The translations under genes and the position numbers were made by a program. From Streptomyces sp. CBMA29 (GTDB lineage: Bacteria; Actinomycetota; Actinomycetes; Streptomycetales; Streptomycetaceae): DNA of 64,000 nt. The first letter of the stretch is position 1. Each line of letters starts with the position of its first letter. Positions 16,758 to 40,850 of the stretch are shown here, in pieces. The stretch spans positions 1 through 64,000 of the forward strand of contig NZ_MECL01000074.1 of assembly GCF_014596445.1 (NCBI RefSeq), given 5' to 3'. The notes below the pieces were generated by a model. That model was not told where the DNA came from and made no database searches. It worked only from the letters and a program-made list of their open reading frames with translations.

Positions 16758-16761
16758 CAGC

Positions 16762-17802: not shown

Positions 17803-19510
<1,708 letters not shown>

Positions 19511-19514
<4 letters not shown>

Positions 19515-20443: not shown

Positions 20444-20465
20444 AGACCCCTGAAGACCCCTGAGA
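20280..20465 (+). repeat. Acidic 18-bp coding repeat and adjoining 10-bp repeat
   Basis: CTCGAC-centred units of 18 bases recur at about 20280-20425 and encode the DLD-rich tail. Just downstream, GACCCCTGAA recurs (20438-20465) and copies the stop codon region. Both look like slippage products. Confidence 0.7.
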
Positions 20466-20483
20466 ACCGGAGGAACACCTGAG

Positions 20484-21968: not shown

Positions 21969-21976
21969 GAGATCCG

Positions 21977-22843
21977 ATGCCCACCCTCATCACACCCGCC
22001 GGCATCGAGGTCCACTACGAGACCGACGGCGACCCGGCCGGGCGGCCATTGGTGCTCGTGCACGGCGGCGGCGCCCAGCTCATCGGCTGGCACGACGAAT
22101 TCGTGGCGCGGCTGGCCGACGCGGGCTTCTTCGTCGTACGCCCGGACAACCGCGACGTCGGGCTCTCCCAGCAGACCGGCGGACCCGACGAGTTCGCCGC
22201 CACGTACGACCTCTCCGACATGGCCGACGACGTCGTCGCGCTCCTGGACCACCTCGGCATCGGCAGTGCGCACCTGGCCGGTATGTCGATGGGCGGCTAC
22301 ATCGCGCAGTTGGTCGCGATCGAGCACCCCGAACGGGTCGCGAGCCTCGGCCTGATGTCGACCTCGCCGTCGAGTGAGCCGGAGTTCCTGGTCGGGACGC
22401 ACGGGGACGGTCAGCCGGTGTCGCGGGCGCCCGAACTTCTCGGCCGGGCGGCCTACATCGAGATGTTCGTCGGCGGCCAGCGGAGCTACCAGTCGCCGGG
22501 CTTCCCCTTCGACGCCGAGGAGTCGGCGGCCCTCGGCGCCCGCTACTACGACCGGGTCTACCGGCCAGACGGCCTGGTGCGGCAGTGGAACGCCATGCTG
22601 CGCGGCCCGTTGGAGCGCCGCGACGACCTGTGCGAGGTCACGGTGCCGACGCTGGTCATCCACGGGCGCGGCGACCAGTCCCTGCACTGGCGGGCCGCGC
22701 TGGCCTTCGCCGAGATCATGCCGCGGGCCGAGGTGCACCTCTATGAGGAGATGGGCCACGACATCCCGCGGGAGCTGTGGCCCGACTTCGTCCGGGCGTT
22801 CGCCCGTACGGCGGCGCGAGCGGAGCGCGGCGACCATGCGTGA
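21977..22843 (+). CDS. Alpha/beta hydrolase
   Basis: A 288-residue hydrolase with the oxyanion strand LVLVHGGGAQ, the nucleophile elbow GMSMGG (Ser104), a cap region (about 140-200), an Asp in VIHGRGDQS, and the catalytic His in MGHDIP. It likely cleaves an ester, lactone or similar bond. It starts nine bases after the amidohydrolase stop and overlaps the next gene by eight bases, so it belongs to the same transcript. The substrate is unknown; the aclacinomycin methylesterase-like subgroup has similar motifs. Confidence 0.85.
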   Translation: MPTLITPAGIEVHYETDGDPAGRPLVLVHGGGAQLIGWHDEFVARLADAGFFVVRPDNRDVGLSQQTGGPDEFAATYDLSDMADDVVALLDHLGIGSAHLAGMSMGGYIAQLVAIEHPERVASLGLMSTSPSSEPEFLVGTHGDGQPVSRAPELLGRAAYIEMFVGGQRSYQSPGFPFDAEESAALGARYYDRVYRPDGLVRQWNAMLRGPLERRDDLCEVTVPTLVIHGRGDQSLHWRAALAFAEIMPRAEVHLYEEMGHDIPRELWPDFVRAFARTAARAERGDHA

Positions 22844-23513
22844 GACCCCCGAGTACACCGGCGGCGGCCTCGCCTGGGCCGCGGACCTGCTGCGCGGACA
22901 TCCCTGGGCGACCATGGTGTCCAACGGCGCTGACGGCGCGGGGCCCGTCGTCTCGCACTACCCCTTCCTGATCGAGGAGCCCGAGGAGCCCGGGGAGCCC
23001 GGGGAGTCCGGGGCCCCCGAAGACTCCACAGCCCCCGGCGAACTGGTGCTGGTCAGCCATGTCGGCCGCCCCGACGAGGCGCTGCACCGGCTCGGCACCC
23101 AGGAGCTGTGCGTGGTCGTCTACGGCCCCAGCGGCTACATCTCGCCGAGCTGGTACGACCTGCCCACCGCCGTACCCACCTGGAACTTCGCCACCGCGCA
23201 CCTGTACGGCGTACCCGACATCCTCCCCGACGAGGAGAATCTGGCCGTGCTCGACCGGCTCGTGGCCCACTTCGAGGCGCCCGTGCCCAACCCGTTCCTG
23301 ATGCGCGGCACTGCGGAGAACGCCGCCTACGCGCAGCGCATCGTGCACGGCACGGTCGGCTTCCGGATGCGGGTCACCCGGGCGGTCACCAAGGAGAAGA
23401 TGAGCCAGGACAAGCCCGAACCGGTCGTCGTGCGCATCCTCGCGGCGCTCGACGGGGACGGCCCGTACGCGAACCCCGGGCTGGCCGCCCGGATGCGTGC
23501 CGTGCGCCGGTGA
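22836..23513 (+). CDS. PaiB-like FMN-binding protein
   Basis: A 225-residue protein with the PaiB family pattern: HPWATMVSNG near the N-terminus, YGPSGYISPSWYD, VPTWNF, and MRVTRAVTKEKMSQDKP. In Bacillus the founder affects sporulation and protease genes, and the split-barrel fold binds FMN. A 20-residue insertion (EEPEEPGEPGESG region, about 47-67) is low-complexity. It overlaps the hydrolase gene, and whether it is an oxidoreductase or a regulator in this operon cannot be told. Confidence 0.8.
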   Translation: MRETPEYTGGGLAWAADLLRGHPWATMVSNGADGAGPVVSHYPFLIEEPEEPGEPGESGAPEDSTAPGELVLVSHVGRPDEALHRLGTQELCVVVYGPSGYISPSWYDLPTAVPTWNFATAHLYGVPDILPDEENLAVLDRLVAHFEAPVPNPFLMRGTAENAAYAQRIVHGTVGFRMRVTRAVTKEKMSQDKPEPVVVRILAALDGDGPYANPGLAARMRAVRR

Positions 23514-23548
23514 GAACGCGGTGCCCGGCGCCGCCAGCCAGACGAGAT

Positions 23549-23565
23549 TTTGCGGACACGCCCTA
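23549..23565 (-). repeat. 17-bp sequence shared with the end of the second PucR gene
   Basis: TTGCGGACACGCCCTAG occurs here and again at 32554-32570. In both places it is at the 3' end of a PucR-family gene and contains that gene's stop codon (CTA on this strand). Confidence 0.8.
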
Positions 23566-25047
23566 GCGGCGGCTGGCGCCGAGCAGCCGCACCCGGCAGG
23601 CGAGTTCGACCGCGAAGCGCGTGTCCGGGTCGTCGAGATCGAGCTGGAGCGTGTCGCGGACGCGCTTGAGCCGGTAGCCGACGGCGTTGGGGTGCAGATT
23701 CAGCTCGCGGCCCGCGTGGGCCAGGGAGTTGCGGTGCGACAGGTAGGCGAGCAGCGTCTGCACCGAGATGTGCGCCCGCTCGGGGCCGAGCGCGTCCAGC
23801 GGCAGCAGGATGTCCGCCAGCAGGCTGCGGCTGGTCGGGGAGGCGTACACGTCGAGCAGCACCCGGCGCAGGCCCGTCACGTCTGTCAGTTCGACGCTGC
23901 CGAGGCGCCCGGCCGCGATGGCGGAACCGGCGGCGATCCGCGCCTCCGCGGCGGACGAACGCAGCCCCGCCGCGCCCGTCTGCGGGGTGCCGAGGCCGAG
24001 TGTGTACTCCCACCCGTGCCCGGTCAGGCCGCGCGCGTACTCCTGGAGCCGGACGGCCACCTCCCGCAGCCGCCGCTGGTGGTCGCCCGCGCCGTGCTCT
24101 TCCGTGCTGACCAGGAGCAGGTCGTCCTGGACGAACGCGACATGCCACATCTCGTCCCGGCCGTCGACCAGTTGGAGCGCGAACAGCTCGAGCGCGGGCT
24201 GCACGCTGCGCGGAGCCCGCGCCTCGGGGTTGTCGAGACCGGTCGGGACCAGCCAGGCCGCGACGTGCGAGAGCTGGAGGGGGAGCCCGAGCATCGCGGC
24301 CTGGCCGACGAAGCCCTCGACCCGGTGGGACTCGGCGAGCACCAGCTCGACGATGAGGTCCGCCCGCGACTGGGTGGGCGCGAAACGGTCGCTGATCTGG
24401 CGCTGGGCGGCCCGCGACAGCAGCGAGGCGACGACGGGCAGGGCGATGGCCATCGCCGGGTCCGACCGGTTCCCGACGAGCCGCCCGATCGGCACCTCGC
24501 CGACGCAGACCGCGTCGGCCGCCGACCAGGTCACGGAGGCGTCCTCCACCAGGGCGAGCTCCGAGCCGAGCATGCGGTTGGCCTCGGCGAGGATGTGCTC
24601 GGGCGTCCCGTCCGGCCCCGCCGCGGCCTCGGTGGCCTTCTCGATGGCGTGCGTCGCCCGCATGATCGCCTCGGACGCGCCGCCCGACAGCAGCCGGTCG
24701 ACCACGAGGGCCAGATCCGCCGACCGCGCGTCGGGAGCGGCGAAGACCGGCACACCACCGCGGTCGGCGAGCACCCTGGCGGTGTCGGGCAGGGTCAGCT
24801 CGGTCGTGAACACGAGCCCCGCGACCTCGCGCGCGCTCGCCTGACGCAGCGCCACGTCCAGCCGGTAGGGCGGCGGGTGCTCGGTGCCCGGAACGATGAC
24901 GAGGGTTCCGGCGGGCACGGTGCCCAGCAGGTCGAGCGGGGAGACGTCCACCCGTACGACGGCGCGCCCGTCCGCGGGCCCGGCGCTGTGCCGGATGCCG
25001 AGGCGGTCGCCCTGGGCGGCGAGGTCGGAGACGGTCAGTTGTGCCAT
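23563..25047 (-). CDS. PucR-family transcriptional regulator
   Basis: A 494-residue regulator. The N-terminal PucR domain (LTVSDLAAQGDRLGIRHSAGP) senses a ligand or effector, a GGDEF-like/CdaR middle region follows, and the C-terminal HTH_30 domain contains RNSLAHAGRELNLHPNAVGYRL. PucR proteins control purine, allantoin and other nitrogen-compound catabolism. It is divergent from the DUF917/hydantoinase operon and convergent with the importer operon, so it is the obvious candidate regulator of this island. Start ATG 25047 is chosen to match the family N-terminus. Confidence 0.88.
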   Translation of the reverse strand: MAQLTVSDLAAQGDRLGIRHSAGPADGRAVVRVDVSPLDLLGTVPAGTLVIVPGTEHPPPYRLDVALRQASAREVAGLVFTTELTLPDTARVLADRGGVPVFAAPDARSADLALVVDRLLSGGASEAIMRATHAIEKATEAAAGPDGTPEHILAEANRMLGSELALVEDASVTWSAADAVCVGEVPIGRLVGNRSDPAMAIALPVVASLLSRAAQRQISDRFAPTQSRADLIVELVLAESHRVEGFVGQAAMLGLPLQLSHVAAWLVPTGLDNPEARAPRSVQPALELFALQLVDGRDEMWHVAFVQDDLLLVSTEEHGAGDHQRRLREVAVRLQEYARGLTGHGWEYTLGLGTPQTGAAGLRSSAAEARIAAGSAIAAGRLGSVELTDVTGLRRVLLDVYASPTSRSLLADILLPLDALGPERAHISVQTLLAYLSHRNSLAHAGRELNLHPNAVGYRLKRVRDTLQLDLDDPDTRFAVELACRVRLLGASRR

Positions 25048-25121
25048 CAGCACAGTATGACGCGATTCTCTGGACTGTCGGGCCATAGGTGCGCTCAGGG
25101 CGCCGCCATATCGTGAGGCCC
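25048..25121. promoter_or_regulatory. Divergent promoter region between pucR-like gene and DUF917 operon
   Basis: Only 74 bases separate the two start codons, so both promoters and the regulator site must be compact and overlapping. I did not find a clear palindrome. Confidence 0.4.
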
Positions 25122-26228
25122 ATGGTTCACACACCCCCCGACGCGCCCGCCCCTCACAGGGCCTCCGCCGTCGCGGCCTCAGACGTCGCGGCGCTGGCCG
25201 CGGGCACAGCGATCTTCGGCACCGGGGGCGGCGGGGCGGTCTACACCTCGCAGATCGTCGCCGAGGAAACGCTCCGCGCGAACGGCCCGGTGCCGCTGGT
25301 CACCGTCGACGATCTCGGCCCCGACGACCTGGTGATCCTCATGTCGGGCATCGGCGCCCCCACCGTGGGCATCGAGATGCTCTCCTCCAACCGTCAGGTC
25401 GACCTCCTCGTCCGCGAGGCCGAGGCCGTCGCCGGCCGCCCCATCACCGCTCTCATGGCCGCGGAGATCGGCGGCAGCAACGGCGTCGGGCCGGTGGGCT
25501 GGGCCTCCCGCCTCGGGCTGAAACTGCTCGACGCCGACGGCATGGGCCGGGCCTTCCCCGACGCGGCGATGGTCGCCATGAACGTCGCCGGAGTCCCGTG
25601 CGACTTCTCCGTCCTGAGCGACGTGGTCGGCAACGTCTCGGTGCTCAAGACCGTCGACCTGCACTGGCTGGAGCGGCACGCGCGCGCCCTCACCGTCGCC
25701 AGCGGCTCCATCTGCCTCGGCGTGCACTACCCCCTCACGGCCGAGACGGCCAAGGGCGCCGTCGTCGAGGGCACGGTCAGCGCCGCCGTCCGCGTCGGCC
25801 ACGCGCTGCTCTCCTCACCCGAGCCGGTCGCCGCCGTGGCCGCGGAACTCGGCGGCTCGATCCTGCTCACCGGCAAGATCACCGACCTCGACCGCCGCAC
25901 TGTCGGCGGCTTCTCCCGCGGCTCCGTGACGATCGCCGGTACGGGCACCGACCGCGGCAGGCTCCAGCGCCTGGAGATCCAGAACGAGAACCTGGTCGTG
26001 CTGGAGGACGGCGAAGTGCTCGTGAGCGTCCCCGACAACGTCACCATCATCGACGCCGAGACCGGCCACGCGATCACCACCGAGATGCTGCGGTACGGCC
26101 AGCGCGTCTCCGTACTCGCCTGGGCGTGCGACCCGATCTGGCGGACACCGCGCGGTCTGGAACTGGCCGGACCGCGGGCGTTCGGATACGAGCTGACCTA
26201 CACCCCCTTCGAAGGAAGCACCCGATGA
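25122..26228 (+). CDS. DUF917 family protein
   Basis: A 368-residue protein beginning near MVHTPPDAPA, with AAGTAIFGTGGGGAVYTSQ, LMAAEIGGSNGV and the C-terminal CDPIWRTPRGLELAGPRAFGY typical of DUF917. Family members occur beside hydantoinase/oxoprolinase-family proteins, as here, where the next gene overlaps by four bases. They are likely partner or accessory subunits in opening a cyclic amide. The reaction itself has not been established to my knowledge. Confidence 0.85.
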   Translation: MVHTPPDAPAPHRASAVAASDVAALAAGTAIFGTGGGGAVYTSQIVAEETLRANGPVPLVTVDDLGPDDLVILMSGIGAPTVGIEMLSSNRQVDLLVREAEAVAGRPITALMAAEIGGSNGVGPVGWASRLGLKLLDADGMGRAFPDAAMVAMNVAGVPCDFSVLSDVVGNVSVLKTVDLHWLERHARALTVASGSICLGVHYPLTAETAKGAVVEGTVSAAVRVGHALLSSPEPVAAVAAELGGSILLTGKITDLDRRTVGGFSRGSVTIAGTGTDRGRLQRLEIQNENLVVLEDGEVLVSVPDNVTIIDAETGHAITTEMLRYGQRVSVLAWACDPIWRTPRGLELAGPRAFGYELTYTPFEGSTR

Positions 26229-27802
26229 CGGCCACGCGCGATCTCTCCATCGGCGTCGACGTCGGCGGCACCAACACCGACGCCGTCGCCATCGACAGCA
26301 CCGGCACCGTGCTCGCCCACACCAAACAGCCGACGACCGACGACGTCACCGGCGGCATCAGGGCCGGAATCGCCCATGTGCTCGCGGCGCTCGGCGAGGA
26401 CCGGTCACGGGTCTCACGGATCATGCTCGGCACGACGCACGCCACCAACGCGATCGTCGCCCGGCGGCAGCTCGACCGGGTGGCGACCATCCGGCTCGGC
26501 GCCCCGGCGGCGACCGAGTACCCGCCGCTGCTCGGTTGGCCGGGCGATCTCGCCGGACTCATCCTGGCGGGGTCCGCGATGGTCGGCGGCGGCCACATGG
26601 TCGACGGCACGCCCATCGCGCCGCTGGACCGGGACGCCATCCTGCGCTTCCTCGACGGACTCGACCACTTCGACGCCGTCGCCGTGACCGGCATCTTCAG
26701 CCCCTCGATGCCGGACCAGGAACTCGAGGTCGCCGAACTGCTCCGCGCCCACCTGGGCCCCGACACGCGCGTCTTCCTCAGCCAGGACATCGGTCCCACC
26801 GGTCTGCTGGAGCGGGAGAACGCCACCGTCCTGAACGCGGCGCTGCACAGCGTGGCCCGCTCGGTCACCGAGGCCCTGATGACGGTCGTCGACGAGGAGG
26901 GGCTCGACGCCGTCACCTTCTTCGCGCAGAACGACGGCACGCTGATGTCGCTGGACTACGCCGCCCAGTACCCGGTGCTCACCATCGGTTCCGGCCCGGC
27001 GAACTCCATCCGCGGCGCGGCCTACCTCTCCGGCGCCACCAACGCGATCGTCATCGACGTCGGCGGCACCACCTCCGACCTGGGCGTGGTGGTGAACGGA
27101 TTCCCCCGCGAGTCCACGCTGCCCCGCGAGATCGGCGGCGTACGGACCAACTTCCGGATGCCCGACATCCTCAGCCTCGGCGTGGGCGGCGGTACGACCA
27201 TCGACCCGGTGACCGGCGCCGTCGGACCGGGCTCCGTGGGCTACCGGATCGCGACGGAGGGCCTGCTCTTCGGCGGCCGGACGCCGACCCTGACCGACGC
27301 GGCAGCCCTCGCGGGCGCCTCGATCGCCGGACGGACCCTCCCCGCCCAGACGGCGGCCGACGAGCAGGTGCTGCGCGCCGCGCTGGAGCGCGCGCACGTG
27401 CTGATCGAGGAAGCCGTGGAACGGCTCTCCCTCGGCCGCGCCGACCTGCCGCTCGTGGTGGTCGGCGGCGGCGGCTTCCTCGTACCCGACGACCTGCCCG
27501 GCGCCGGTCCCATCGTGCGGCCCGACCACGGCGACGTCGCGAACGCGGTGGGCGCCGCGATCTCGCTCGCCGGAGGCCGCGCCGACCAGATCAGCCCTCT
27601 GGAGGACCGTGAGGCGGCCATCGCCCAGGCGTCGGAGGCGGCGATCGCCAAGGCGATCCAGGCGGGCGCCGACCCGCTGGAAGTGGCCGTCGTCGACGTG
27701 CTGGAGACGCCCGTCCCTTACAGCGACCGGCCGACCGTGGAAGTGTCGGTCAAGGCCGCGGGACCGCTGGCGCGGCTCGGCGAACGGGCCGCGGCGCGGT
27801 GA
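26225..27802 (+). CDS. Hydantoinase/oxoprolinase family protein (HyuA-like)
   Basis: A 525-residue protein with the actin-like ATPase fold of HyuA/oxoprolinase: SIGVDVGGTNTDAVAID at the N-terminus (phosphate 1), LGTTHATNAIV, AIVIDVGGTTSDLGVV (phosphate 2, about residue 275) and the glycine-rich VVGGGGFLVPDD. Relatives couple ATP hydrolysis to opening of hydantoin, oxoproline or acetone carboxylation. It lacks the large C-terminal part of full 5-oxoprolinases and instead pairs with DUF917. It overlaps both neighbours by four bases, which supports one functional unit. Confidence 0.87.
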   Translation: MTATRDLSIGVDVGGTNTDAVAIDSTGTVLAHTKQPTTDDVTGGIRAGIAHVLAALGEDRSRVSRIMLGTTHATNAIVARRQLDRVATIRLGAPAATEYPPLLGWPGDLAGLILAGSAMVGGGHMVDGTPIAPLDRDAILRFLDGLDHFDAVAVTGIFSPSMPDQELEVAELLRAHLGPDTRVFLSQDIGPTGLLERENATVLNAALHSVARSVTEALMTVVDEEGLDAVTFFAQNDGTLMSLDYAAQYPVLTIGSGPANSIRGAAYLSGATNAIVIDVGGTTSDLGVVVNGFPRESTLPREIGGVRTNFRMPDILSLGVGGGTTIDPVTGAVGPGSVGYRIATEGLLFGGRTPTLTDAAALAGASIAGRTLPAQTAADEQVLRAALERAHVLIEEAVERLSLGRADLPLVVVGGGGFLVPDDLPGAGPIVRPDHGDVANAVGAAISLAGGRADQISPLEDREAAIAQASEAAIAKAIQAGADPLEVAVVDVLETPVPYSDRPTVEVSVKAAGPLARLGERAAAR

Positions 27803-28974
27803 CCGAGTTCACCGCGGGTGACGCGGCGCGCGCCGACCTCGTCGCGCTGCGCCGGGCACTGCACGCCCACCCCGAGGTCGGCCTCGACCTGCCCCGGACG
27901 CAGGCGGCGATCGTCACCGCGCTGGACGGCCTCGGCCTGGAGATCACCACCGGGGACGGTCTGACGTCGGTGACGGCCGTGCTGCGCGGCGGCCGGCCGG
28001 GCCCCGTCGTCCTGCTGCGCTCCGACATGGACGCCCTGCCGGTCCCGGAGGCCACCGGCCTGCCGTTCGCGGCGGCCAACGGCGCCATGCACGCCTGCGG
28101 CCACGACCTGCACATGGCGGGCCTGGTCGGCGCCGCCCGGCTCCTCGCGGCCCGCTGCGCGGAGCTGCCCGGCACCGTCGTGTTCATGTTCCAGCCCGGC
28201 GAGGAGGGGTACGCGGGCGGTCGGCTGATGATCGAGGAAGGCGTCCTGGAGGCGGCGGGCGAGCGCCCGGTCGCCGCGTACGCCGTCCATGTCGACTGCG
28301 TGACGCCGGGGGGCCGGGCGGTCACCCGGCCGGGTCCGATGATGTCGAGCGTCAGCGCGCTGCACCTCCGGGTGACCGGGACCGGGGGCCACGCCGCCTA
28401 CCCCCACCACGGGTTCGACCCGGTCCCGGTGGCGGCCGAGATCATCCTCGCGGCGCAGTCCTTCGTGGCGCGCCGGATACCGGTCGCCGACCCGGCCGTG
28501 GTCTCGGTGACCCGCGTCTCCTCCGACTCCGCCGCGGGCAACGTCCTCGCCGCCTCCGTCAGCCTGGAGGCGAACATCCGCGCCCTGTCGCCCGCGACGC
28601 TCGCGCTGGTACGTGACGGACTCCCGGCGCTGGCCGTCGCGCTCGGCGAGGCGCACGGCTGCGCGGTCGACACCGAGTACGTCGAGTCGTACCCGGTGAC
28701 GGTCAACGACCCGGCAGAGACCGAACGGGTGCTCGCGCTGCTCGACGAGCGCTACGGCGACCGGGTGGTGCGCCTGCCGTTCCCCGGCATGGCCTCGGAG
28801 GACTTCGCCTACGTGCTCGAAAAGGTGCCCGGCACACTGGTCTTCCTCGGCGTACGGCCCGAGGACGGTACGAGCGGCCCGATGCACTCCGAGCGGGCGG
28901 TCTTCGACGACTCCCGCCTCGGCGAACACGCGGCGCTCCTGGCGGAACTGGCCTGGCGGCGCCTCGCATCCTGA
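27799..28974 (+). CDS. M20-family metallo-amidohydrolase
   Basis: A 391-residue M20D-type enzyme (HipO/AmaA-like). The metal site is built from HACGHDLHMAG, MFQPGEEGYAGG and a late FPGMASEDFAY; the lid domain carries TGTGGHAAYPHHG. It would hydrolyse an N-acyl or N-carbamoyl amino acid. GTG 27799 overlaps the HyuA-like stop by four bases. With an aminotransferase next, it probably releases a free amino acid that the aminotransferase then processes. Confidence 0.88.
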   Translation: MTEFTAGDAARADLVALRRALHAHPEVGLDLPRTQAAIVTALDGLGLEITTGDGLTSVTAVLRGGRPGPVVLLRSDMDALPVPEATGLPFAAANGAMHACGHDLHMAGLVGAARLLAARCAELPGTVVFMFQPGEEGYAGGRLMIEEGVLEAAGERPVAAYAVHVDCVTPGGRAVTRPGPMMSSVSALHLRVTGTGGHAAYPHHGFDPVPVAAEIILAAQSFVARRIPVADPAVVSVTRVSSDSAAGNVLAASVSLEANIRALSPATLALVRDGLPALAVALGEAHGCAVDTEYVESYPVTVNDPAETERVLALLDERYGDRVVRLPFPGMASEDFAYVLEKVPGTLVFLGVRPEDGTSGPMHSERAVFDDSRLGEHAALLAELAWRRLAS

Positions 28975-29064
28975 GGGCCGCCGCGCCCGCCCGCCCGTCG
29001 GCTCCCCCTACCGGCGTTCGCTCAGCCGACCGCGCGCTCGAAACACCCGTCCGAGGAGGAAATT

Positions 29065-30285
29065 GTGCACGCAGGAACCACCACAGGCACCACCGTTCCA
29101 CAGCGCCGGGTGAGCCGGCTCGCCAACAACTACTCGCCCCTTCCGGTGCGGGCCGAGTCCGCGCGGGGCGTCTGGGTCACGGACGCCTCGGGCAGCCGTT
29201 TCCTCGACATGCTCAGCGCCTACTCCGCGATGAACTTCGGCCACGGCAACCCCACCCTGCTCGCGGCGGCCCACGACCAGCTCGCGGCGATGACCCTGAT
29301 CAGCCGCGCCTACGACCACACCGGGATGGAGCGGTACGCCGCCGCGCTCAGCGACCTGGCCGGCAAGGACATGATGGTGCCGATGAACACCGGCGCGGAG
29401 GCCGTCGAGACCGCCGTCAAGGTCGCCAGGAAGTGGGCCTACGAGGTCAAGGGCGTCCGCGAGAACCGGGCCGAGATCATCGTGGCCTCCGGCAACTTCC
29501 ACGGCCGGACGACCACCGTCGTCGGCTTCTCCGACGACCCCGACGCCAGGAACGGGTTCGGACCGTTCACCCCGGGCTTCGTGACGGTGGCCTACGGCGA
29601 CGCGGCGGCGCTGGAAGCGGCGATCACCCCCGACACCGCCGCGGTGCTGCTGGAGCCGGTGCAGGGCGAGGCCGGTGTGATCATCCCCGACGCGGGTTAT
29701 CTGCCCGCGGTGCGCCGGATCTGCGACGAGCAGGGCGTCCTGTTCCTCGCCGACGAGATCCAGTCGGGCCTGGGGCGGACGGGGGAGACCTTCGCCTGCG
29801 ACCACGTCGCGGTGACGCCCGACGTGTACATCCTGGGCAAGGCGCTCGGCGGCGGCATCGTCCCCGCGTCCGCGGTGGTCGCCGACAGCGACGTCCTCGG
29901 TGTCCTGCGCCCGGGGCAGCACGGCTCGACCTTCGGCGGCAACCCGCTGGCCTGCCGGATCGGAACCGCCGTCGTCGATCTGCTGAAGACCGGGGAGTAC
30001 CAGGAGCGCGCCCGGACCTTGGGGGCGCTCCTGCGCGACGAGCTGGCGCCGTTGGTCGGCCGGGGGCTGGTCTCGGTCCGGACCATCGGGCTGTGGGCGG
30101 GGATCGACGTCGACCCCTCGCTCGCCACCGGCCGTACCGTCTGCGAGGAGCTGGCCCGGCGCGGTGTGCTCGCGAAGGACACGCACGGCTCCACCGTGCG
30201 GCTCTCGCCTCCCCTGGTGATCGAGCCGAGCGAGCTGTCCTGGGGCGTCGCCCAGCTCGCCGACGTCCTGCGGGCGCTGGCGTAA
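29065..30285 (+). CDS. rocD: Ornithine aminotransferase
   Basis: A 406-residue class III PLP aminotransferase. NYSPLPVRAESARGVWVTD, MLSAYSAMNFGHGNP and MMVPMNTGAEAVETAVK are close to RocD/OAT, and the PLP lysine is Lys259 in ILGKALGGG. The reaction converts ornithine and 2-oxoglutarate to glutamate-5-semialdehyde and glutamate. GTG 29065 has an excellent GAGGAGGA Shine-Dalgarno. It may be transcribed with the upstream M20 gene (90-base gap). A stem (GCCGTCC/GGACGGC) at 30295-30311 follows. Confidence 0.87.
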   Translation: MHAGTTTGTTVPQRRVSRLANNYSPLPVRAESARGVWVTDASGSRFLDMLSAYSAMNFGHGNPTLLAAAHDQLAAMTLISRAYDHTGMERYAAALSDLAGKDMMVPMNTGAEAVETAVKVARKWAYEVKGVRENRAEIIVASGNFHGRTTTVVGFSDDPDARNGFGPFTPGFVTVAYGDAAALEAAITPDTAAVLLEPVQGEAGVIIPDAGYLPAVRRICDEQGVLFLADEIQSGLGRTGETFACDHVAVTPDVYILGKALGGGIVPASAVVADSDVLGVLRPGQHGSTFGGNPLACRIGTAVVDLLKTGEYQERARTLGALLRDELAPLVGRGLVSVRTIGLWAGIDVDPSLATGRTVCEELARRGVLAKDTHGSTVRLSPPLVIEPSELSWGVAQLADVLRALA

Positions 30286-30294
30286 GCGGTTCCG

Positions 30295-30311
30295 CCGTCC
30301 TCAGGACGGCA
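30295..30311 (+). terminator. Short hairpin after ornithine aminotransferase gene
   Basis: GCCGTCC and GGACGGC enclose TCA, ten bases after the stop. There is no T-run. A second similar stem CCGTCC/GGACGG follows at about 30336-30350. Probably an end-of-transcript structure for the 25.1-30.3 kb operon. Confidence 0.4.
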
Positions 30312-30471
30312 GTGACGAGGGCCCGGCATCAGGCCGTCCTGATGGACGGTGGGCCCATCGCCGTCGGTCGGCGCCACAACTATCGTGCGGCGCAGAGGCG
30401 GAAACAGACATGCGGCATCCGGCCGTGTCCACGCGGCGGAGCCGACGAGAACGAAGAGGCAGGGGTGCGGG

Positions 30472-31710
30472 ATGGACAGGGACCAGACGGAGACCGGCGC
30501 CGACGGCCGGGCCGCACTGACCGGAGTGGTGGTCGTCGACCTGTCCCACGTCCTGGCGGGACCGTACGCCGCGCAGACGCTGGCCGACCTCGGCGCGACC
30601 GTCATCAAGGTCGAGAATCCCGCGAACCCCGATGTGTCGCGCGGCTTCCCGCCGTACCTGCGCTCGGACGACGAGGAGTTCAGCGGGTACTACGGCCAGT
30701 ACAACCGCGGCAAGCTCGGTGTCTGCCTCGACCTGGCCCGTGACGAAGGCAAGCAGGCGCTCAAGGACCTGGTCGCCCACGCCGACGTCCTCGTCGAGAA
30801 CTTCCGGCCCGGCACCATGGACAAGCTCGGCCTGGGCTACGAGGTGCTGGCCGGGATCAACCCCCGGCTGGTGTACACGGCCATCTCCGGCTACGGCCAG
30901 ACGGGCAGCCGTCGCCGCCGTCCGGCCTTCGACAGCACCGCGCAGGCCGCGGGCGGCCTGTGGTCGATGAACGGCTATCCCGACACCCCGCCGGTGCGGG
31001 TGGGCGTCACCATCGGAGACCTGTCGGCCACGATGTTCGCCGTCGTCGGCACCCTGGCCGCGTTGCGGCACGCCGAGAGCACCGGCGTCGGCCAACTGGT
31101 GGACGTCGCCCAGGTCGACAGCGTCCTCGCCATGACCGAGACGGCCGTCGTCGACTACACCGTCGACCGGAAGGTCGCGACACCCGCCGGGAACGAGCAC
31201 GCGTGGGTCAGGCCGTACGAGCTGTTCCCCTGCGCCGACGGGCAGGTGTTCTTCGGCGGCTACACCGACAAGCTCTGGGCGGCCAGTTGCGCACTGTTCG
31301 GCACGCCCGAGGCGGCCACGGACCCCGAGATCGACACGATGCGCAAACGCTTCGACAAGGAGACGTACGACCGCCGGGTGAAGCCGCTGGTCACCGGCTG
31401 GTTCGCCGGGCGGACCCGGCAGGAGCTTGAGGACCTCGCGGGCGACCTCATCCCGCTGACGGCCGTCCGCGACATCGGGGAGGTCGTCGAGGACCCGGGC
31501 ACCGCCGAGCGGGACATGATCGTCGAGGCCGACTACGGCCCGCTGGGCGCGTTGCGGATGTTCGGCTCGCCCATCAAGCTCAGCGCCACCCCCGCCGTGC
31601 CGGGGCGAACCGCCAACAAGGTGGGGGAGCACACCGACGAGGTGCTGCGCCGCTTCGCGGGTTACGACCGGGCGCGGATCGAAGAGCTGCGCGCGGCGAA
31701 GGTGATCTGA
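30472..31710 (+). CDS. CaiB/BaiF family (class III) CoA transferase
   Basis: A 412-residue class III CoA transferase. VVVDLSHVLAGPYAAQTLADLGATVIKVENP is the N-terminal CoA-binding region and the catalytic Asp is Asp154 in AFDSTAQAAGG. It moves CoA between acyl carriers through aspartyl intermediates. Human SUGCT, which handles glutarate and 3-hydroxy-3-methylglutarate, belongs to this family, and the locus encodes HMG-CoA enzymes, so HMG is an attractive acceptor here. That substrate is inference. ATG 30472 is used; the longer frame upstream looks non-coding. Confidence 0.86.
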   Translation: MDRDQTETGADGRAALTGVVVVDLSHVLAGPYAAQTLADLGATVIKVENPANPDVSRGFPPYLRSDDEEFSGYYGQYNRGKLGVCLDLARDEGKQALKDLVAHADVLVENFRPGTMDKLGLGYEVLAGINPRLVYTAISGYGQTGSRRRRPAFDSTAQAAGGLWSMNGYPDTPPVRVGVTIGDLSATMFAVVGTLAALRHAESTGVGQLVDVAQVDSVLAMTETAVVDYTVDRKVATPAGNEHAWVRPYELFPCADGQVFFGGYTDKLWAASCALFGTPEAATDPEIDTMRKRFDKETYDRRVKPLVTGWFAGRTRQELEDLAGDLIPLTAVRDIGEVVEDPGTAERDMIVEADYGPLGALRMFGSPIKLSATPAVPGRTANKVGEHTDEVLRRFAGYDRARIEELRAAKVI

Positions 31711-31712
31711 CG

Positions 31713-32570
31713 ATGGGTGAGGAGACCGTCCGCCGCGAGCCGTTGCGGACCGAGCCCGCCGCCGCGTACCGCTCCACCTTCGCGCCCTCCGCCCCTGAGC
31801 CGGTACTCGGCGAGCCGCTGCCCGCGGGCTGGGAGGGGATCTGCTTCCCCTTCGACGCGGCCTTCGCCGACCTGCGCCCCGACGGCTCGCCCGGCGCCGA
31901 CGGCACGGTGCCCGACCCCGGCCTGCCCCGGCGCATGTACGCCGGTGAGGACACCCGCTTCCTGCGGCCCCTGCGCTACGGCGACACGGTCGAACAGCGC
32001 ACCACGCCCGGGGCCGTGACCCGCAAGCGCGGCCGGGCCGGGGAACTGGTCTTCGCCGACATCGAGCGGGCCTACCTGGTGGACGGCGCCGTCGCGGTCA
32101 CGAGCACCTGGCACGACGTGTTCCTGCCCGCGAGCGACCCCGCTGCCGCGCCCGCCGACGTACCCGCGGGCGAGGCCGAGCGGTGGGACTGGTCGCGGCG
32201 GGCGACCCTGGACAGCCGACAGCTCTTCCGGTACTCGGCGCTGACCTTCAACACCCACCGGGTGCACTACGACCGGGCCTGGGCGCAGGACGTCGAGGGC
32301 CTGCCCGACCTGCTGGTGCACGGCCCCCTGATGCGCGTGCTCCTGCTCGACTTCGTGACGCGCTCACTGCCCGGCCGCACGATCCGCGAGTTCTCGATGC
32401 GCTCGGTCTCGCCCGCGTTCGTCGACCGGCCGGTGACCCTGGTCGGACGCGAGGACGCCGACGGCGTCCGGGTCCGCGTCCTGGACGCCGCCCACCGCCC
32501 GCTCGCCCGCGGCCTTGCTCGTACGCAAGCGCCCTCCGGGCGACGACCAGACCTTGCGGACACGCCCTAG
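31713..32570 (+). CDS. MaoC/FAS1-like acyl-CoA dehydratase
   Basis: A 285-residue hotdog-fold protein of the HTD2/mesaconyl-C4-CoA hydratase type. The first hotdog half carries RRMYAGEDTRFLRPLRYGD; the second carries the hydratase motif LTFNTHRVHYDRAWA followed by LPDLLVHGPLM. It should hydrate or dehydrate a branched or dicarboxylic enoyl-CoA; 3-methylglutaconyl-CoA would fit the neighbouring HMG-CoA genes. It begins two bases after the CoA transferase and its TAG stop overlaps the convergent PucR gene's stop, within the 17-base repeat. Confidence 0.83.
   Translation: MGEETVRREPLRTEPAAAYRSTFAPSAPEPVLGEPLPAGWEGICFPFDAAFADLRPDGSPGADGTVPDPGLPRRMYAGEDTRFLRPLRYGDTVEQRTTPGAVTRKRGRAGELVFADIERAYLVDGAVAVTSTWHDVFLPASDPAAAPADVPAGEAERWDWSRRATLDSRQLFRYSALTFNTHRVHYDRAWAQDVEGLPDLLVHGPLMRVLLLDFVTRSLPGRTIREFSMRSVSPAFVDRPVTLVGREDADGVRVRVLDAAHRPLARGLARTQAPSGRRPDLADTP
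32554..32570 (-). repeat. Second copy of the 17-bp PucR-end sequence
   Basis: TTGCGGACACGCCCTAG again, here serving two convergent genes: TAG 32568-32570 ends the dehydratase and CTA 32567-32569 is the stop of the PucR gene on the other strand. Confidence 0.8.
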
Positions 32571-34507
32571 GAACGGCGCAGCCGCTCGGCGATCTCGTCC
32601 AGCCGGACGGCGAGCGAGAGCCGGAAGAACAGCTCGTCGTCGCGCCAGCCCTCGCCCAGGAGCCGGGTCAGCCGTTCGATCCGCTGGAGGATCGTGTTGG
32701 TGTGGAAGCCCAGCTCCCGGCCGGTCCTGGTCGGGCTCGACTGATTGCGTACGAAGGCGCGCAGGGTGGCGAGCAGGTCCGTACCGTGCTCGGCGTCGTA
32801 GCGCCGTACCGGCCCCACCATCGTGTCGAGATACGCGGTCAGGGCGGCGGGGTCGGGCTCGAAGACCGCCGCGTAGGGGTGGTAGTCCTCGGCCCGCGCC
32901 GCGAGGTCGCCCGCCCCCAGGGCCTGGAGCAGCCGGACGGTGCGCCGCGCCGTCACGGCCGCCGCGGGCAGGTCACCGGCCGTCGCGGCGCTCACCGACA
33001 GCACCGGGACCGACAGCGCCTCGCGCAGCTGGTCGTGGAGCCGCTGGACGGTGACGCCGGGCTGCCGGGACGACAGGGCGACGGCGACGTTGCCGCCGTA
33101 CTCGCCCACCAGCGCCCGGCTGTGCAGCGGACCGAGTAGCGTCCGGGTCGCCTGCGGCCGGTGCTCGCCCGGCACGGCGAAGAGCACGAGGGTGTCGAGG
33201 TCCTGGACGGGGACGCGCAACCGCTTGGCCCGGCGCACCGCGTCGCGCCGGCGGTCGGGCGAGCCGTCCAGCAGATCGGCCAGCAACTCGCCCTGCCTGC
33301 GGTGCTCCGCGTCCGAGACGGCCTGCCGCTGCATGGCCAGGAGCGTGCCGACCTGCGCCCCCCGCTCGACGGTCCGCAGGTCGACGGAGCTGAGCGGGAA
33401 ACCGCCCGTACCGAGCAGCACGGCGCCGAAGTAGTACGAGCCGGTCGTCAGGGCGGCGACCGCCCCGATGTCCCCGCCGTCCTCGACCAGGACGCAGCGG
33501 CCCGAGTCATGGCTGGCCCGTACGGCGTCGGCGACCGGTGACGCGCGGCGCACCGCGTCGGCCGACAGGGCGCGCCCGGCCGTCACGATCACCTCGCCGT
33601 ACTCGTCCACGACGGCCACCGCGCGGTCCAGGGCCTCGGCGAGCTTCTCGGCGATCGGCGAGAAGCCGCTGTCCTCCAGCACGGACCGGATGAGCTGCTG
33701 ATGCACCGCGTTGGCGCGGTCGCGCTCGACCAAGTGCTCCCTCAGCAGCTCCAGCGCGTCGCGCGCCTCCTCCTGGGAGCGCTGGAGGCGCTGGAGCCGC
33801 TGCGCGGTCTGGAGCACCACCGAGGCGTGGTTGGCGAGCGCCGAGAGCAGCGCGACCTGCTCGGGAGTGAAGGCGTGCTCGTCGCGGGTCCCGACGAACA
33901 GCACCCCCAGGACGTCCTCGTCGGAGAGCAGCGGCACGCCGAGGAGCGAGACCAGGCCCTCGGCGGCGACCGCCTCGGACAGCGAGTCCTCGTGCCACCC
34001 GACGGAGTCGTCCTCGTAACGCGTCACCCACTGCGCGGCGCGGGTCTCGACCACGAGGCCGGCCAGCCCGCGGCCGGGCGGCACCACCAGGCGCTGGAAG
34101 CGCGGGCTGACCGAGCCCGCCGTCTTGCGGACCCGCAGCGTCAGGCTGGCGGCGTCGAACTCCGAGAGATACGTGACGTCGGAGTCCATCATGTCGTGCG
34201 CGCGCTCCACCAGCCGGGCCAGCAGCGCGTCGGCGTCCCGCTCCTCGGCCAGTTCCCGGGCGCTGGAGAACAGGGCGGTCAGCTCGTGCTCACGGCGGCG
34301 CAGCCGCAGGTGGTCGCGCCGCACCCCGTACAGCCGCTGCGCGGTGCCCGCCGCGGAACCGCCGGTCACGCCGAGGTCCGCGAGCGCGTCGTCCAGCCGG
34401 TAGGGGTCCACCGCCTGTTCGCCGACGGCCGCGTCCAGGACGACCGCCAGCGCCCGCGCGCGGCCGGCCGCCGTACCGCCGTCCGCCCGCTCGGCTCCGC
34501 TCTCCAC
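32567..34507 (-). CDS. GAF-domain PucR-type transcriptional regulator
   Basis: A 646-residue regulator. A GAF domain lies at about residues 85-250 (LVERAHDMMDSDVTYLSEFD, GLVSLLGVPLLSDEDVLGVLFVG), a middle CdaR-like region follows, and the C-terminal HTH_30 contains SPTRTGRELGFHTNTILQRIERL. GTG 34507 is favoured because GGAGGGA lies nine bases upstream; a GTG at 34609 would add 34 Arg/Gln-rich residues. It lies between the CoA transferase operon (convergent) and the HMG-CoA reductase operon (divergent) and is the likely activator of one or both. Confidence 0.85.
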   Translation of the reverse strand: MESGAERADGGTAAGRARALAVVLDAAVGEQAVDPYRLDDALADLGVTGGSAAGTAQRLYGVRRDHLRLRRREHELTALFSSARELAEERDADALLARLVERAHDMMDSDVTYLSEFDAASLTLRVRKTAGSVSPRFQRLVVPPGRGLAGLVVETRAAQWVTRYEDDSVGWHEDSLSEAVAAEGLVSLLGVPLLSDEDVLGVLFVGTRDEHAFTPEQVALLSALANHASVVLQTAQRLQRLQRSQEEARDALELLREHLVERDRANAVHQQLIRSVLEDSGFSPIAEKLAEALDRAVAVVDEYGEVIVTAGRALSADAVRRASPVADAVRASHDSGRCVLVEDGGDIGAVAALTTGSYYFGAVLLGTGGFPLSSVDLRTVERGAQVGTLLAMQRQAVSDAEHRRQGELLADLLDGSPDRRRDAVRRAKRLRVPVQDLDTLVLFAVPGEHRPQATRTLLGPLHSRALVGEYGGNVAVALSSRQPGVTVQRLHDQLREALSVPVLSVSAATAGDLPAAAVTARRTVRLLQALGAGDLAARAEDYHPYAAVFEPDPAALTAYLDTMVGPVRRYDAEHGTDLLATLRAFVRNQSSPTRTGRELGFHTNTILQRIERLTRLLGEGWRDDELFFRLSLAVRLDEIAERLRRS

Positions 34508-34773
34508 AGCGACCGCTCCCTCCGCGCGCCGCGCCGACTGCTGTTGCCGACTTCTGCCGCCGAACCCTGTCGTCGACCTGTGCCGCCGACCGCTGTGCGC
34601 TGCGCACACTCAGCGTGCCCTACGACGTGCTGACGGTCCATAGCGGGGGGTTCCGTGCCGTCACTAGCGTGACCAGCACCCGAGGGACGCGCCCCCGCGC
34701 GTCCCTCGGCACCACCGCTCCCGTCCTTCACCGCTCCCGCCCGTGACCGCTTCCGGAGGAAGGCCATGGCATC
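34508..34773. promoter_or_regulatory. Divergent control region for PucR gene and HMG-CoA operon
   Basis: No gene is supported in these 266 bases. GGAGGAAGG (34755-34763) is the ribosome binding site of the reductase gene. I saw no clear inverted repeat that could be named as the regulator site. Confidence 0.4.
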
Positions 34774-36038
<1,265 letters not shown>

Positions 36039-36042
<4 letters not shown>

Positions 36043-37013
36043 CCCGGTCGCCGGTCGCGCTCGGACTGCCCGCCGCCCACCGGTCGCCGGGACTGCCGCG
36101 CCGGGTGACGGTCTACGAGGTCGGCGCCCGCGACGGGCTTCAGGCCGAGCAGGCCCAGGTGCCCACCGGGGCCAAGGTCCGGATGATCCGCGACCTGGCC
36201 GCCGCCGGGCTGCCCGTGGTCGAGGCGACCAGCTTCGTCTCCCCGCGCTGGATCCCGCAGTTGGCGGACGCCGCAGATGTGCTCGCCGCGTTGCGGGAGG
36301 CGGGCGCGGACCTGAGCAGGCACCCCGTCCTGGTGCCGAACGGCCGGGGTCTTGACCGCGCCCTGGACGCCGGGGCGTCGGCCGTCGCGGTCTTCGTCAG
36401 CGCGACCGAGACCTTCGCGCGCCGCAATCTGGCGATGGGCCGCTCGGAGGCGGTCGAGGTCGCGGGAGAAGTGACCGAGCGGGCACTGGCCGCGGGTCTC
36501 CGGGTCCGCGGCTATGTCTCGATGGCCTTCGGCGATCCCTGGGAGGGGCCGGTCCGCCCGGAACGGGTCGCGGAGGTGACCCGGGACCTGGTCGACGCCG
36601 GGTGCCACGAGGTGAGCCTCGGCGACACCGTCGGCGTCGGCACACCGGGCCACGTGGGCGCGGTCCTCGCAGCGGTCGCCGAGGCGGGTGTGGCCCGCGA
36701 CCGGATCGCCCTGCACTTCCACGACACGTACGGTCAGGCCCTGGCCAACGTGCACGCGGGACTGCTCGCCGGGGTCACGACCTTCGACGCCTCGGCCGGC
36801 GGCATCGGCGGCTGCCCGTACGCGGGCTCCGCCACCGGCAACCTCGCGACGGAGGACCTGCTCTGGATGCTCACCGGTCTCGGCATCGAGACCGGGGTCG
36901 ACCTGGACGCGGCGATGCGCGCGGGGCTCCGTGTCACCGCGCTCCTCGGCCGGCCGTCCCCGTCACGGGTCGTCCAGGCCCTGGACCGCGACTGGCCGGA
37001 CGGGGACCGCTAG
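36039..37013 (+). CDS. HMG-CoA lyase
   Basis: A 324-residue HMGL-like TIM-barrel lyase that splits HMG-CoA into acetoacetate and acetyl-CoA. The N-terminal EVGARDGLQAEQ carries the catalytic Arg-Asp pair, metal ligands include LHFHDTYGQALAN, and the flexible-loop signature GGIGGCPYAGSATGN holds Cys259, the residue required in known lyases. GTG 36039 overlaps the reductase stop. The pair reductase-lyase is sufficient to convert mevalonate to central metabolites. Confidence 0.92.
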
Positions 37014-37028
37014 GGCGCGGGCGGGCGG

Positions 37029-37886
37029 TCAGTACGGGTAGAAACCCGCGCCCGTCTTGCGGCCGAGGCGGCCCGCGTCGACCATCCGCTGAAGGATCGG
37101 CGGCGCCGCGTACAGCGGCTCCTTGTACTCGGAGTACATCGAGTCGGCGATGGCGGCGACCGTGTCGAGGCCGATCAGGTCCGACAGCTTGAGCGGGCCC
37201 ATCGGGTGCGCGCAGCCCAGCTCCATGCCGTTGTCGATGTCCTCGCGGGTCGCGATGCCCGACTCGAACATCCGGATCGCGGAGAGCAGATACGGCACCA
37301 GGAGCGCGTTGACGACGAAGCCGGAGCGGTCCTGGGCCCGGATGGCGTGCTTGCCGAGCACGTCGGTGACCAGCGCCTCGGTCCGCTGGAGGGTGTCGCT
37401 GCCGGTGGTGAGCGCGGGGATCAGCTCGACCAGGCGCTGCACCGGGGCGGGGTTGAAGAAGTGGATGCCGATGACCTGGTCGGGCCGGGAGGTCGCCACG
37501 GCCAGCTTGACCAGCGGGATCGAGGAAGTGTTGGAGGCCAGGATCGCGTCCTGCCGGGTCACCACCTGGTCGAGCACCCGGAAGATGTCGATCTTGACCT
37601 GCTCGTTCTCCACCACGGCCTCGATGACCAGGTCGCGGTCGGCGAACTCGCCCAGGTCGGTGGTGAAGGTCAGCCGGGCCAGCGTCTCGTCGCGCTCCGC
37701 CTCGGTGATCTTGCCGCGCTCCGCGGCCTTGCCGAGCGAGTTCGTCAGCCGGGTGCGGCCCAGTTCCAGGGCCTCACCGGTGGTCTCCGCGACCCGGACG
37801 TCGAGCCCGGCCTTCGCGCACACCTCCGCGATGCCCGCCCCCATCTGGCCCGCGCCGACCACTCCGACGCGCTGGATGTCACTCAC
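37029..37886 (-). CDS. 3-hydroxybutyryl-CoA dehydrogenase
   Basis: A 285-residue NAD(P)-dependent dehydrogenase. The Rossmann motif is GVVGAGQMGAGIAEVCAKAG, then ASNTSSIPL, the catalytic His region GIHFFNPAPVQRLVEL, and the C-terminal domain GRLGRKTGAGFYPY. It oxidises or forms 3-hydroxybutyryl-CoA or a branched analogue in fatty acid, polyhydroxybutyrate or ethylmalonyl-CoA metabolism. It is convergent with the lyase gene, so it is not in that operon, yet its substrate class matches. A long inverted repeat lies just upstream of the start. Confidence 0.92.
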   Translation of the reverse strand: MSDIQRVGVVGAGQMGAGIAEVCAKAGLDVRVAETTGEALELGRTRLTNSLGKAAERGKITEAERDETLARLTFTTDLGEFADRDLVIEAVVENEQVKIDIFRVLDQVVTRQDAILASNTSSIPLVKLAVATSRPDQVIGIHFFNPAPVQRLVELIPALTTGSDTLQRTEALVTDVLGKHAIRAQDRSGFVVNALLVPYLLSAIRMFESGIATREDIDNGMELGCAHPMGPLKLSDLIGLDTVAAIADSMYSEYKEPLYAAPPILQRMVDAGRLGRKTGAGFYPY

Positions 37887-37904
37887 TCGTCAGCCCCTGC
37901 CGCT

Positions 37905-37957
37905 TCCGTGTACCGCTTCCGTGTACCGGACAGACGTTACCTGTGTCCGGTACACGG
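37905..37957. promoter_or_regulatory. 14-bp perfect inverted repeat and direct repeat upstream of the dehydrogenase
   Basis: CCGTGTACCGGACA (37919-37932) and TGTCCGGTACACGG (37944-37957) are perfect inverted copies around an 11-base loop. The left arm's CTTCCGTGTACCG is also repeated directly (37903-37928 region). The site is 33-71 bases upstream of the dehydrogenase start and 47 bases or more after the xyloglucanase stop. It could be an operator or a factor-independent end structure for the upstream gene; the extra direct repeat favours an operator. Confidence 0.55.
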
Positions 37958-40757: not shown

Positions 40758-40850
40758 GGAAAGGCGTCCTCTCCGTACGGACGCGGGCCGCGCCGGGCCC
40801 GCGCGTGCGGGTGGTGGGGGGATGGACGGTGGCGCTATACATAGGAGGTG

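What the first reader, a model, noticed from the sequence alone, without database searches (positions are those of the whole stretch)
30472..37957. Compact locus for mevalonate or HMG catabolism in a streptomycete
A class II HMG-CoA reductase and HMG-CoA lyase overlap as in the mvaAB operon of Pseudomonas mevalonii. Next to them are a class III CoA transferase (the family of human SUGCT, which uses HMG), a MaoC/FAS1-like hydratase, a hydroxyacyl-CoA dehydrogenase, and a dedicated GAF-PucR regulator. Together they could activate free HMG or oxidise mevalonate to acetyl-CoA and acetoacetate. I know of no described PucR-controlled version of this pathway.
Basis: partly seen in the sequence, partly recalled or inferred. 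Interest (0 to 1): 0.65.

Follow-up and report, generated by a model that had tools for sequence, protein, structure and literature searches.

The report
22-kb mevalonate-linked catabolic island, actinobacterium
A soil-type actinobacterium carries an inserted 22,000-base set of genes that looks built to import a peptide-like compound, cut it up and burn its isoprenoid acid part through mevalonate and HMG-CoA; the same set recurs in two distantly related actinobacteria, and the unknown starting compound may be a fungal iron chelator.

Summary
The genes are real and correctly placed. HMG-CoA reductase (degradative class II) overlaps HMG-CoA lyase by 4 nt; a class III CoA-transferase, an itaconyl-CoA-hydratase-like MaoC protein and a GAF-PucR regulator adjoin. 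No HMG-CoA synthase or mevalonate-PP decarboxylase was found, so the reductase is degradative. The hydroxyacyl-CoA dehydrogenase does not belong: it is a core gene in all 15 genus relatives searched, outside the insert. Relatives show an empty site; the real unit is an island at ~14,810-37,020 that also holds an Opp transporter, Amidohydro_3, alpha/beta-hydrolase, second PucR, DUF917, HyuA, M20 amidohydrolase and ornithine aminotransferase. Fourteen of its genes recur together in Agrococcus and 12 in Murinocardiopsis. The transferase subfamily is absent from 394 actinobacterial genomes lacking this reductase and present in 9 of 14 having it, nearly always beside a hydratase (MaoC or crotonase). 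I infer that transferase and hydratase convert an unsaturated C6 acid (anhydromevalonate, or 3-methylglutaconate) to mevalonate/HMG-CoA, which reductase and lyase degrade. A fungal hydroxamate siderophore (coprogen, dimerumic acid) is a speculative source. PucR-linked HMGR loci are common among actinobacterial HMGR loci; I found no paper describing them.

The parts
14810..37020 (.). Whole catabolic island (approximate borders), absent in genus relatives where the two flanks abut
   Evidence: blastn of the window against 12 relatives: window ~14,809 and ~37,020 lie 12-34 nt apart in L108, L109, L112, L113, L117 (sequences)
15159..16757 (+). OppA-type solute-binding protein (start approximate)
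   Evidence: PF00496 6e-51; best solved relatives include NikA/metallophore and peptide-binding SBPs
16762..17802 (+). Opp permease B
   Evidence: PF00528
17799..19514 (+). Opp permease C fused to ATPase D
   Evidence: PF00528 + PF00005
19511..20443 (+). Opp ATPase F
   Evidence: PF00005 + oligo_HPY
20484..21968 (+). Amidohydro_3 hydrolase (59% identical in the Agrococcus cluster)
   Evidence: PF07969 2e-52
21977..22843 (+). alpha/beta-hydrolase, esterase-like
   Evidence: PF00561; macrolide-esterase-like but far below cut-off
22851..23513 (+). PaiB-like FMN-binding protein
   Evidence: PF04299 1e-31
23563..25047 (-). PucR1 regulator (start by inspection; ORF open to 25134)
   Evidence: HTH_30 8e-18 + GGDEF_2
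25134..26228 (+). DUF917 / S-Me-THD-like protein
   Evidence: PF06032 + PF20906; 73% and 68% identical in the Agrococcus and Murinocardiopsis clusters
26225..27802 (+). HyuA, hydantoinase/oxoprolinase subunit A-like
   Evidence: PF05378 + PF01968; 79% and 69% identical
27799..28974 (+). M20 N-acyl-amino-acid amidohydrolase
   Evidence: TIGR01891 271 bits over its cut-off of 154; 71% in Agrococcus
29065..30285 (+). Ornithine aminotransferase, second copy in the genome
   Evidence: TIGR01885 432 bits over its cut-off of 378; 63% identical to the copy at C45
30472..31710 (+). Class III CoA-transferase of an HMGR-linked subfamily
   Evidence: PF02515 9e-118; 0 of 395 other actinobacterial genomes at E<=1e-100
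31713..32570 (+). MaoC/FAS1-DH-like hydratase, HRVHYD motif
   Evidence: PF13452; 8khg itaconyl-CoA hydratase 6e-34, motif aligned
32567..34609 (-). PucR2: GAF-PucR regulator divergent from HMGR
   Evidence: GAF_2 1e-17, HTH_30 2e-13; homologues beside HMGR in most actinobacterial loci
34681..34708 (.). Inverted repeat CGAGGGACGCG-CCCC-CGCGCGTCCCTCG in the divergent promoter region (possible operator or terminator)
   Evidence: function untested
34774..36042 (+). Class II HMG-CoA reductase, degradative (mvaA)
   Evidence: TIGR00532 398 bits; Asp at the P. mevalonii Asp146 position and catalytic E/K/D/H kept
36039..37013 (+). HMG-CoA lyase (mvaB)
   Evidence: NF004283 361 bits; RD, HxHD, GGC and N motifs kept

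Best explanation
The feature is part of one acquired ~22-kb catabolic island with two PucR regulators. Shown by sequence: an Opp importer, amide/ester hydrolases (Amidohydro_3, alpha/beta-hydrolase, M20), a DUF917-HyuA pair and a CoA-transferase-hydratase-HMGR-HMGL block lie on the same insert, and most of the set recurs as a unit elsewhere. Inferred: an N-acylated, peptide-like compound is imported and opened by the hydrolases, releasing an alpha,beta-unsaturated branched C6 acid. The class III transferase makes its CoA ester, with the product CoA ester or succinyl-CoA as donor, and the MaoC protein (a crotonase in other lineages) adds water across the double bond. If the acid is anhydromevalonate, the product is mevalonyl-CoA, whose CoA can be passed to the next anhydromevalonate to free mevalonate. 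HMGR then runs oxidatively (mevalonate + CoA + 2 NAD+ to HMG-CoA) and HMG-CoA lyase splits HMG-CoA to acetyl-CoA and acetoacetate. These would be the fungal SidI/SidH steps of siderophore synthesis in reverse. The ornithine aminotransferase suggests that the amino part is ornithine-derived, which would fit fungal anhydromevalonyl-hydroxyornithine siderophores; that last step is only a lead (about 0.2). The stated confidence covers the catabolic direction, the single-unit island and the unsaturated-acid role of transferase and hydratase, not the siderophore.
For: Degradative HMGR: TIGR00532 over its cut-off, NADH-type Asp, only HMGR in the genome, no HMG-CoA synthase or mevalonate-PP decarboxylase. 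Single insert: flanks abut in relatives; HMGR in 1 of 35 genus genomes. Unit conserved: Agrococcus holds PucR2, HMGR, CoAT 77%, MaoC, alpha/beta-hydrolase, Amidohydro_3, PucR1, DUF917, HyuA, OppABCDF and M20; Murinocardiopsis holds 12 of the genes. CoAT subfamily restricted to HMGR genomes: 0 of 394 against 9 of 14, Fisher p 2.5e-15, and CoAT and HMGR distances correlate, r 0.84, permutation p 0.0002, 12 loci. A hydratase, MaoC or crotonase, accompanies the CoAT; Pseudomonas has mvaA-mvaB-CoAT-split MaoC-TctA-like permease in one run. Mevalonyl-CoA/anhydromevalonyl-CoA chemistry is known in fungi (PMC3709128). DUF917 and Opp genes are enriched in cyclodipeptide-oxidase clusters (PMC11055893).
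Against: No substrate was tested; transferase and hydratase score below every named equivalog. Free HMG, mevalonate alone or 3-methylglutaconate are not excluded. M20 is missing from the Murinocardiopsis cluster, and ornithine aminotransferase and HMG-CoA lyase from both related clusters (lyase homologues lie elsewhere). No gene for removing the N-hydroxyl group of hydroxyornithine was recognised, the importer is not siderophore-type, and no DmdR iron box exists in the window. The genome comparison is not a random sample, since the HMGR loci were found by similarity to this window.
Confidence: 0.55

Rival explanations
1. One reading: mevalonate and free HMG catabolism. The transferase activates HMG, as SUGCT does; HMGR and HMGL do the rest; the hydratase is a side activity.
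For: SUGCT is a relative (9br6, 196 bits); mvaAB core; simple PucR-HMGR-HMGL-TctA loci exist in Nocardia, Rhodococcus and Agrococcus.
Against: Does not explain why a hydratase of two unrelated folds keeps company with the transferase, nor the amide hydrolases and Opp system on the same insert. The simple mevalonate loci lack the transferase.
Confidence: 0.17
2. The unsaturated acid is 3-methylglutaconate (as in ferrichrome A): transferase and hydratase give HMG-CoA directly, lyase finishes, and HMGR serves a second substrate, mevalonate.
For: HMG-CoA is the shared node. [quoted passage not shown]
Against: HMGR is the constant partner while HMGL is absent from the Agrococcus and Murinocardiopsis clusters, the reverse of what this predicts. 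MaoC-type hydratases usually give the R product, whereas HMGL uses S-HMG-CoA (general enzymology, not tested here).
Confidence: 0.15
3. Two unrelated cargo modules share an island by chance: peptide/cyclic-amide catabolism (Opp, DUF917, HyuA, M20, PucR1) and mevalonate catabolism (PucR2, CoAT, MaoC, HMGR, HMGL).
For: DUF917-HyuA pairs occur widely without HMGR; PucR2-HMGR-HMGL occurs without DUF917.
Against: The two blocks keep the same company in three actinobacterial lineages, and the closest DUF917/HyuA relatives found (68-79%) are all in such clusters.
Confidence: 0.13

Closest known systems
mvaAB mevalonate catabolism operon of Pseudomonas mevalonii
   Same: Degradative class II HMGR followed by an overlapping HMG-CoA lyase; NADH-type Asp; no biosynthetic partners
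   Different: PucR regulator instead of the activator MvaR (recalled, not tested); added CoA-transferase and hydratase; Opp importer and amide hydrolases
CoA-transferase + MaoC hydratase pairs of itaconate/mesaconate catabolism (Ict/Ich, Mct/Meh)
   Same: Class III transferase next to a FAS1/MaoC-type hydratase; best solved relative of the hydratase is itaconyl-CoA hydratase
   Different: Partner is HMGR/HMGL, not citramalyl-CoA lyase; transferase is below every named equivalog cut-off
Fungal SidI/SidH (mevalonyl-CoA ligase and hydratase of siderophore synthesis)
   Same: The proposed chemistry, mevalonate / mevalonyl-CoA / anhydromevalonyl-CoA, in the opposite direction
   Different: Biosynthetic; a ligase rather than a transferase; no relation by sequence was tested
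Caprolactamase / hydantoinase / oxoprolinase family and DUF917 clusters
   Same: HyuA-type subunit with a likely ring-opening role; HyuA-HyuB beside CoAT-crotonase-HMGR in Streptomyces and Brevibacterium relatives
   Different: In the window HyuA is paired with DUF917, not HyuB; ring substrate unknown

Membership tests
mvaAB-type mevalonate catabolism | Degradative class II HMGR over its curated cut-off | tested here: met
   TIGR00532 398.4 against 259.95 bits
mvaAB-type mevalonate catabolism | Catalytic Glu/Lys/Asp/His and the NAD(H)-selecting Asp | tested here: met
   E81, K259, D275, H374 conserved in 84 aligned sequences (one gap at E81); helix DPALVRF keeps Asp, although the Dx(V/L)xxxL motif is only partly matched
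mvaAB-type mevalonate catabolism | HMG-CoA lyase in the same operon | tested here: met
   NF004283 361 bits, 4-nt overlap
mvaAB-type mevalonate catabolism | No mevalonate biosynthesis in the genome | tested here: met
   No PF08540 and no TIGR01240 match; genome 93.9% complete
mvaAB-type mevalonate catabolism | Growth on mevalonate | not testable with these tools
   needs culture
SUGCT (succinate-HMG CoA-transferase) | Closest relative among characterised class III transferases | tested here: not met
   YfdE 227, formyl-CoA transferase 205, SUGCT 196 bits; NF052585 268 against a 750 cut-off
Itaconyl-CoA hydratase (Ich) | Homologous double-hotdog protein with the HR[IV]HYD motif | tested here: met
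   8khg 6e-34, motif aligned
Itaconyl-CoA hydratase (Ich) | Neighbouring citramalyl-CoA lyase (Ccl) | tested here: not met
   neighbours are HMGR/HMGL
Siderophore catabolism cluster | Siderophore-type uptake or iron regulation | tested here: not met
   importer is Opp type; no DmdR box in the window with up to 3 mismatches
Siderophore catabolism cluster | Enzymes for ornithine and for the C6 acid together | tested here: inconclusive
   ornithine aminotransferase present here but absent from the two related clusters

The most novel reading that the evidence does not exclude
The island is a dedicated pathway by which actinobacteria use fungal anhydromevalonyl-ornithine siderophores (coprogen, dimerumic acid, fusarinines) as carbon and nitrogen, with a transferase-hydratase cycle that turns anhydromevalonate into mevalonate for a degradative HMG-CoA reductase.
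Probability: 0.2. Interest if true: 0.82.

Novelty: new variant of a known kind. Interest (0 to 1): 0.6.

Why it matters
Bacterial mevalonate breakdown is known mainly from one Pseudomonas operon, and its natural substrates are obscure. The finding shows a PucR-linked form spread across actinobacteria and an extension (CoA-transferase plus hydratase) that predicts an unrecognised feedstock entering at mevalonate or HMG-CoA. If the feedstock is a fungal siderophore, these would be genes by which bacteria consume fungal iron chelators as food, which bears on competition for iron in soil.

Tried and rejected
Membership of the 3-hydroxyacyl-CoA dehydrogenase: rejected, core gene outside the insert. 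Biosynthetic mevalonate pathway: rejected. Mobility marks: no direct repeat of 10 nt or more at the borders, GC 73.2% inside against 72.4% and 69.5% outside; no integrase was noticed among the island ORFs. Iron box: none. Shared promoter words between the PucR2-HMGR, OAT-CoAT and PucR1-DUF917 gaps: none. Ergothioneine/thiohydantoin catabolism for DUF917: 105 bits against a 450 cut-off, not supported. Literature: five-term search empty, PucR + mevalonate nothing relevant, 3-methylglutaconate + transferase nothing. Structure prediction was not used because it would not settle the substrate.
Full report
Observation. The five genes named at 30472-37013 are present, open and intact. Profile searches give a class III CoA-transferase, a FAS1-DH/MaoC-type protein, a GAF-PucR regulator, an HMG-CoA reductase in the curated 'degradative' family (398 bits, cut-off 260) and an HMG-CoA lyase. 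HMGR and HMGL overlap by 4 nt. The MaoC-type protein is closest among solved proteins to itaconyl-CoA hydratase (8khg, 6e-34), with the HR[IV]HYD motif aligned. Catalytic residues of HMGR and HMGL are conserved.

Direction of the reductase. It is the only HMGR in the genome. There is no HMG-CoA synthase and no mevalonate-diphosphate decarboxylase (genome 93.9% complete). Its cofactor helix DPALVRF carries the Asp typical of NADH enzymes, although the published Dx(V/L)xxxL motif (PMC13370337) is only partly matched. Two more distant actinobacterial HMGRs from the survey carry HPQMVAR, like the NADPH-type enzymes. I conclude that this HMGR is catabolic.

The unit is an island. The hydroxyacyl-CoA dehydrogenase is found at 86-92% identity in all 15 genus relatives searched, while HMGR is in 1 of 35 genus genomes. 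In several relatives the DNA matching window ~14,809 and ~37,020 is 12-34 nt apart (sequences). The insert is therefore about 22.2 kb, ends just after HMGL, and excludes the dehydrogenase.

The island recurs. A cluster in Agrococcus sp. Marseille-P2731 (L172+L173) has PucR2 48%, HMGR 67%, CoAT 77%, MaoC 54%, alpha/beta-hydrolase 45%, Amidohydro_3 59%, PucR1 64%, DUF917 73%, HyuA 79%, OppA 45%, OppB 58%, OppCD 57%, OppF 66% and M20 71%. Murinocardiopsis flavida (L015, L141-L143) has twelve of these. Neither has HMGL or ornithine aminotransferase inside the cluster. Agrococcus has a second, simple PucR2-HMGR-HMGL-TctA locus (L008), and Murinocardiopsis has a 40% HMGL homologue elsewhere.

Variation among HMGR loci. 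Across 80 named loci, the actinobacterial ones mostly pair HMGR with PucR2. Three forms are seen. The first is a simple form, PucR2-HMGR-HMGL plus a TctA-like permease (Nocardia, Rhodococcus, Agrococcus). The second has HyuA-HyuB-CoAT-crotonase (Streptomyces L002 and L023, Sciscionella L006, Brevibacterium L174; L003 has HyuA-HyuB-CoAT). The third is the window form with DUF917-HyuA-CoAT-MaoC and Opp. Pseudomonas L070 and L079 have mvaA-mvaB-CoAT-split MaoC-TctA-like permease. So the transferase usually comes with a hydratase of one of two unrelated folds.

Background. In 396 actinobacterial genomes the transferase at E<=1e-100 occurs only in the window's own genome. Of 14 actinobacterial genomes with the degradative HMGR, 9 have it, Fisher p 2.5e-15 against 0 of 394. 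HMGR and CoAT distances correlate (r 0.84, permutation p 0.0002, 12 loci). These genomes are related and were found through this window, so the p-values overstate independence. In the same 396 genomes the MaoC protein has only distant relatives (38% identity or less).

Mechanism (inferred). A transferase plus hydratase next to HMGR implies a free alpha,beta-unsaturated acid that becomes mevalonate or HMG-CoA. Anhydromevalonate uses all four enzymes in a line; fungi make anhydromevalonyl-CoA from mevalonate by the reverse steps, SidI and SidH (PMC3709128). 3-Methylglutaconate would need no HMGR, yet HMGR is the constant member and HMGL is the one missing from the related clusters. From general enzymology (not tested), MaoC-type hydratases usually form R products and crotonases S products, so the two forms could serve trans and cis isomers; this is only a suggestion.

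Source compound (speculative). Opp import, amide and ester hydrolases, DUF917-HyuA and ornithine aminotransferase suggest an N-acylated peptide-like compound. DUF917 and Opp genes are enriched in cyclodipeptide-oxidase clusters (PMC11055893), and caprolactamase-family proteins may include cyclic dipeptide hydrolases (PMC6061476). Fungal coprogen and dimerumic acid are built from anhydromevalonyl-hydroxyornithine (PMC12278577), and a soil Pseudomonas was reported to use ferrichrome A as a carbon source (cited in PMC10866069). Against this: no iron box, no siderophore-type importer, no recognised enzyme for the N-hydroxyl group, and ornithine aminotransferase not conserved in the related clusters.

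Verdict.

Noticed in passing
window 37029-37886: 3-hydroxybutyryl-CoA dehydrogenase is a core gene at the right edge of the insertion site, next to a GH74-like secreted protein with a cellulose-binding-like C-terminus (38004-40976; read from sequence).
   Followed up: yes
L008 and L172-L173 (Agrococcus): One genome has two degradative HMGR loci: a simple PucR-HMGR-HMGL-TctA locus and a full copy of the island cluster without HMGL.
   Followed up: partly
L005:12305-14190; L070:14534-16437; L079:13135-15065: A TctA-family permease with a small partner and no binding protein follows mvaAB in actinobacteria and pseudomonads: a candidate mevalonate transporter.
   Followed up: no
L070:13522-14441; L079:12289-13142: The MaoC-type hydratase is split into two adjacent genes in the Pseudomonas mvaAB-CoAT operons.
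   Followed up: partly
L006:659-7910: Mo-hydroxylase-like subunits, a C-N hydrolase and a luciferase-like monooxygenase lie upstream of the Sciscionella PucR2-HMGR-HyuAB-CoAT-crotonase-HMGL run (read from sequence only); another substrate class is possible there.
   Followed up: no
L131, L132: Actinobacterial HMGRs about 46% identical to the window's carry an NADPH-type helix (HPQMVAR) and look biosynthetic.
   Followed up: no
window 34681-34708: Near-perfect inverted repeat in the PucR2-HMGR divergent gap; operator or terminator, untested.
   Followed up: no
window 22851-23513; L174:5655-6386; Murinocardiopsis contig (L141:3587 region): PaiB-like FMN-binding proteins recur near these HMGR loci; role unknown.
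   Followed up: no
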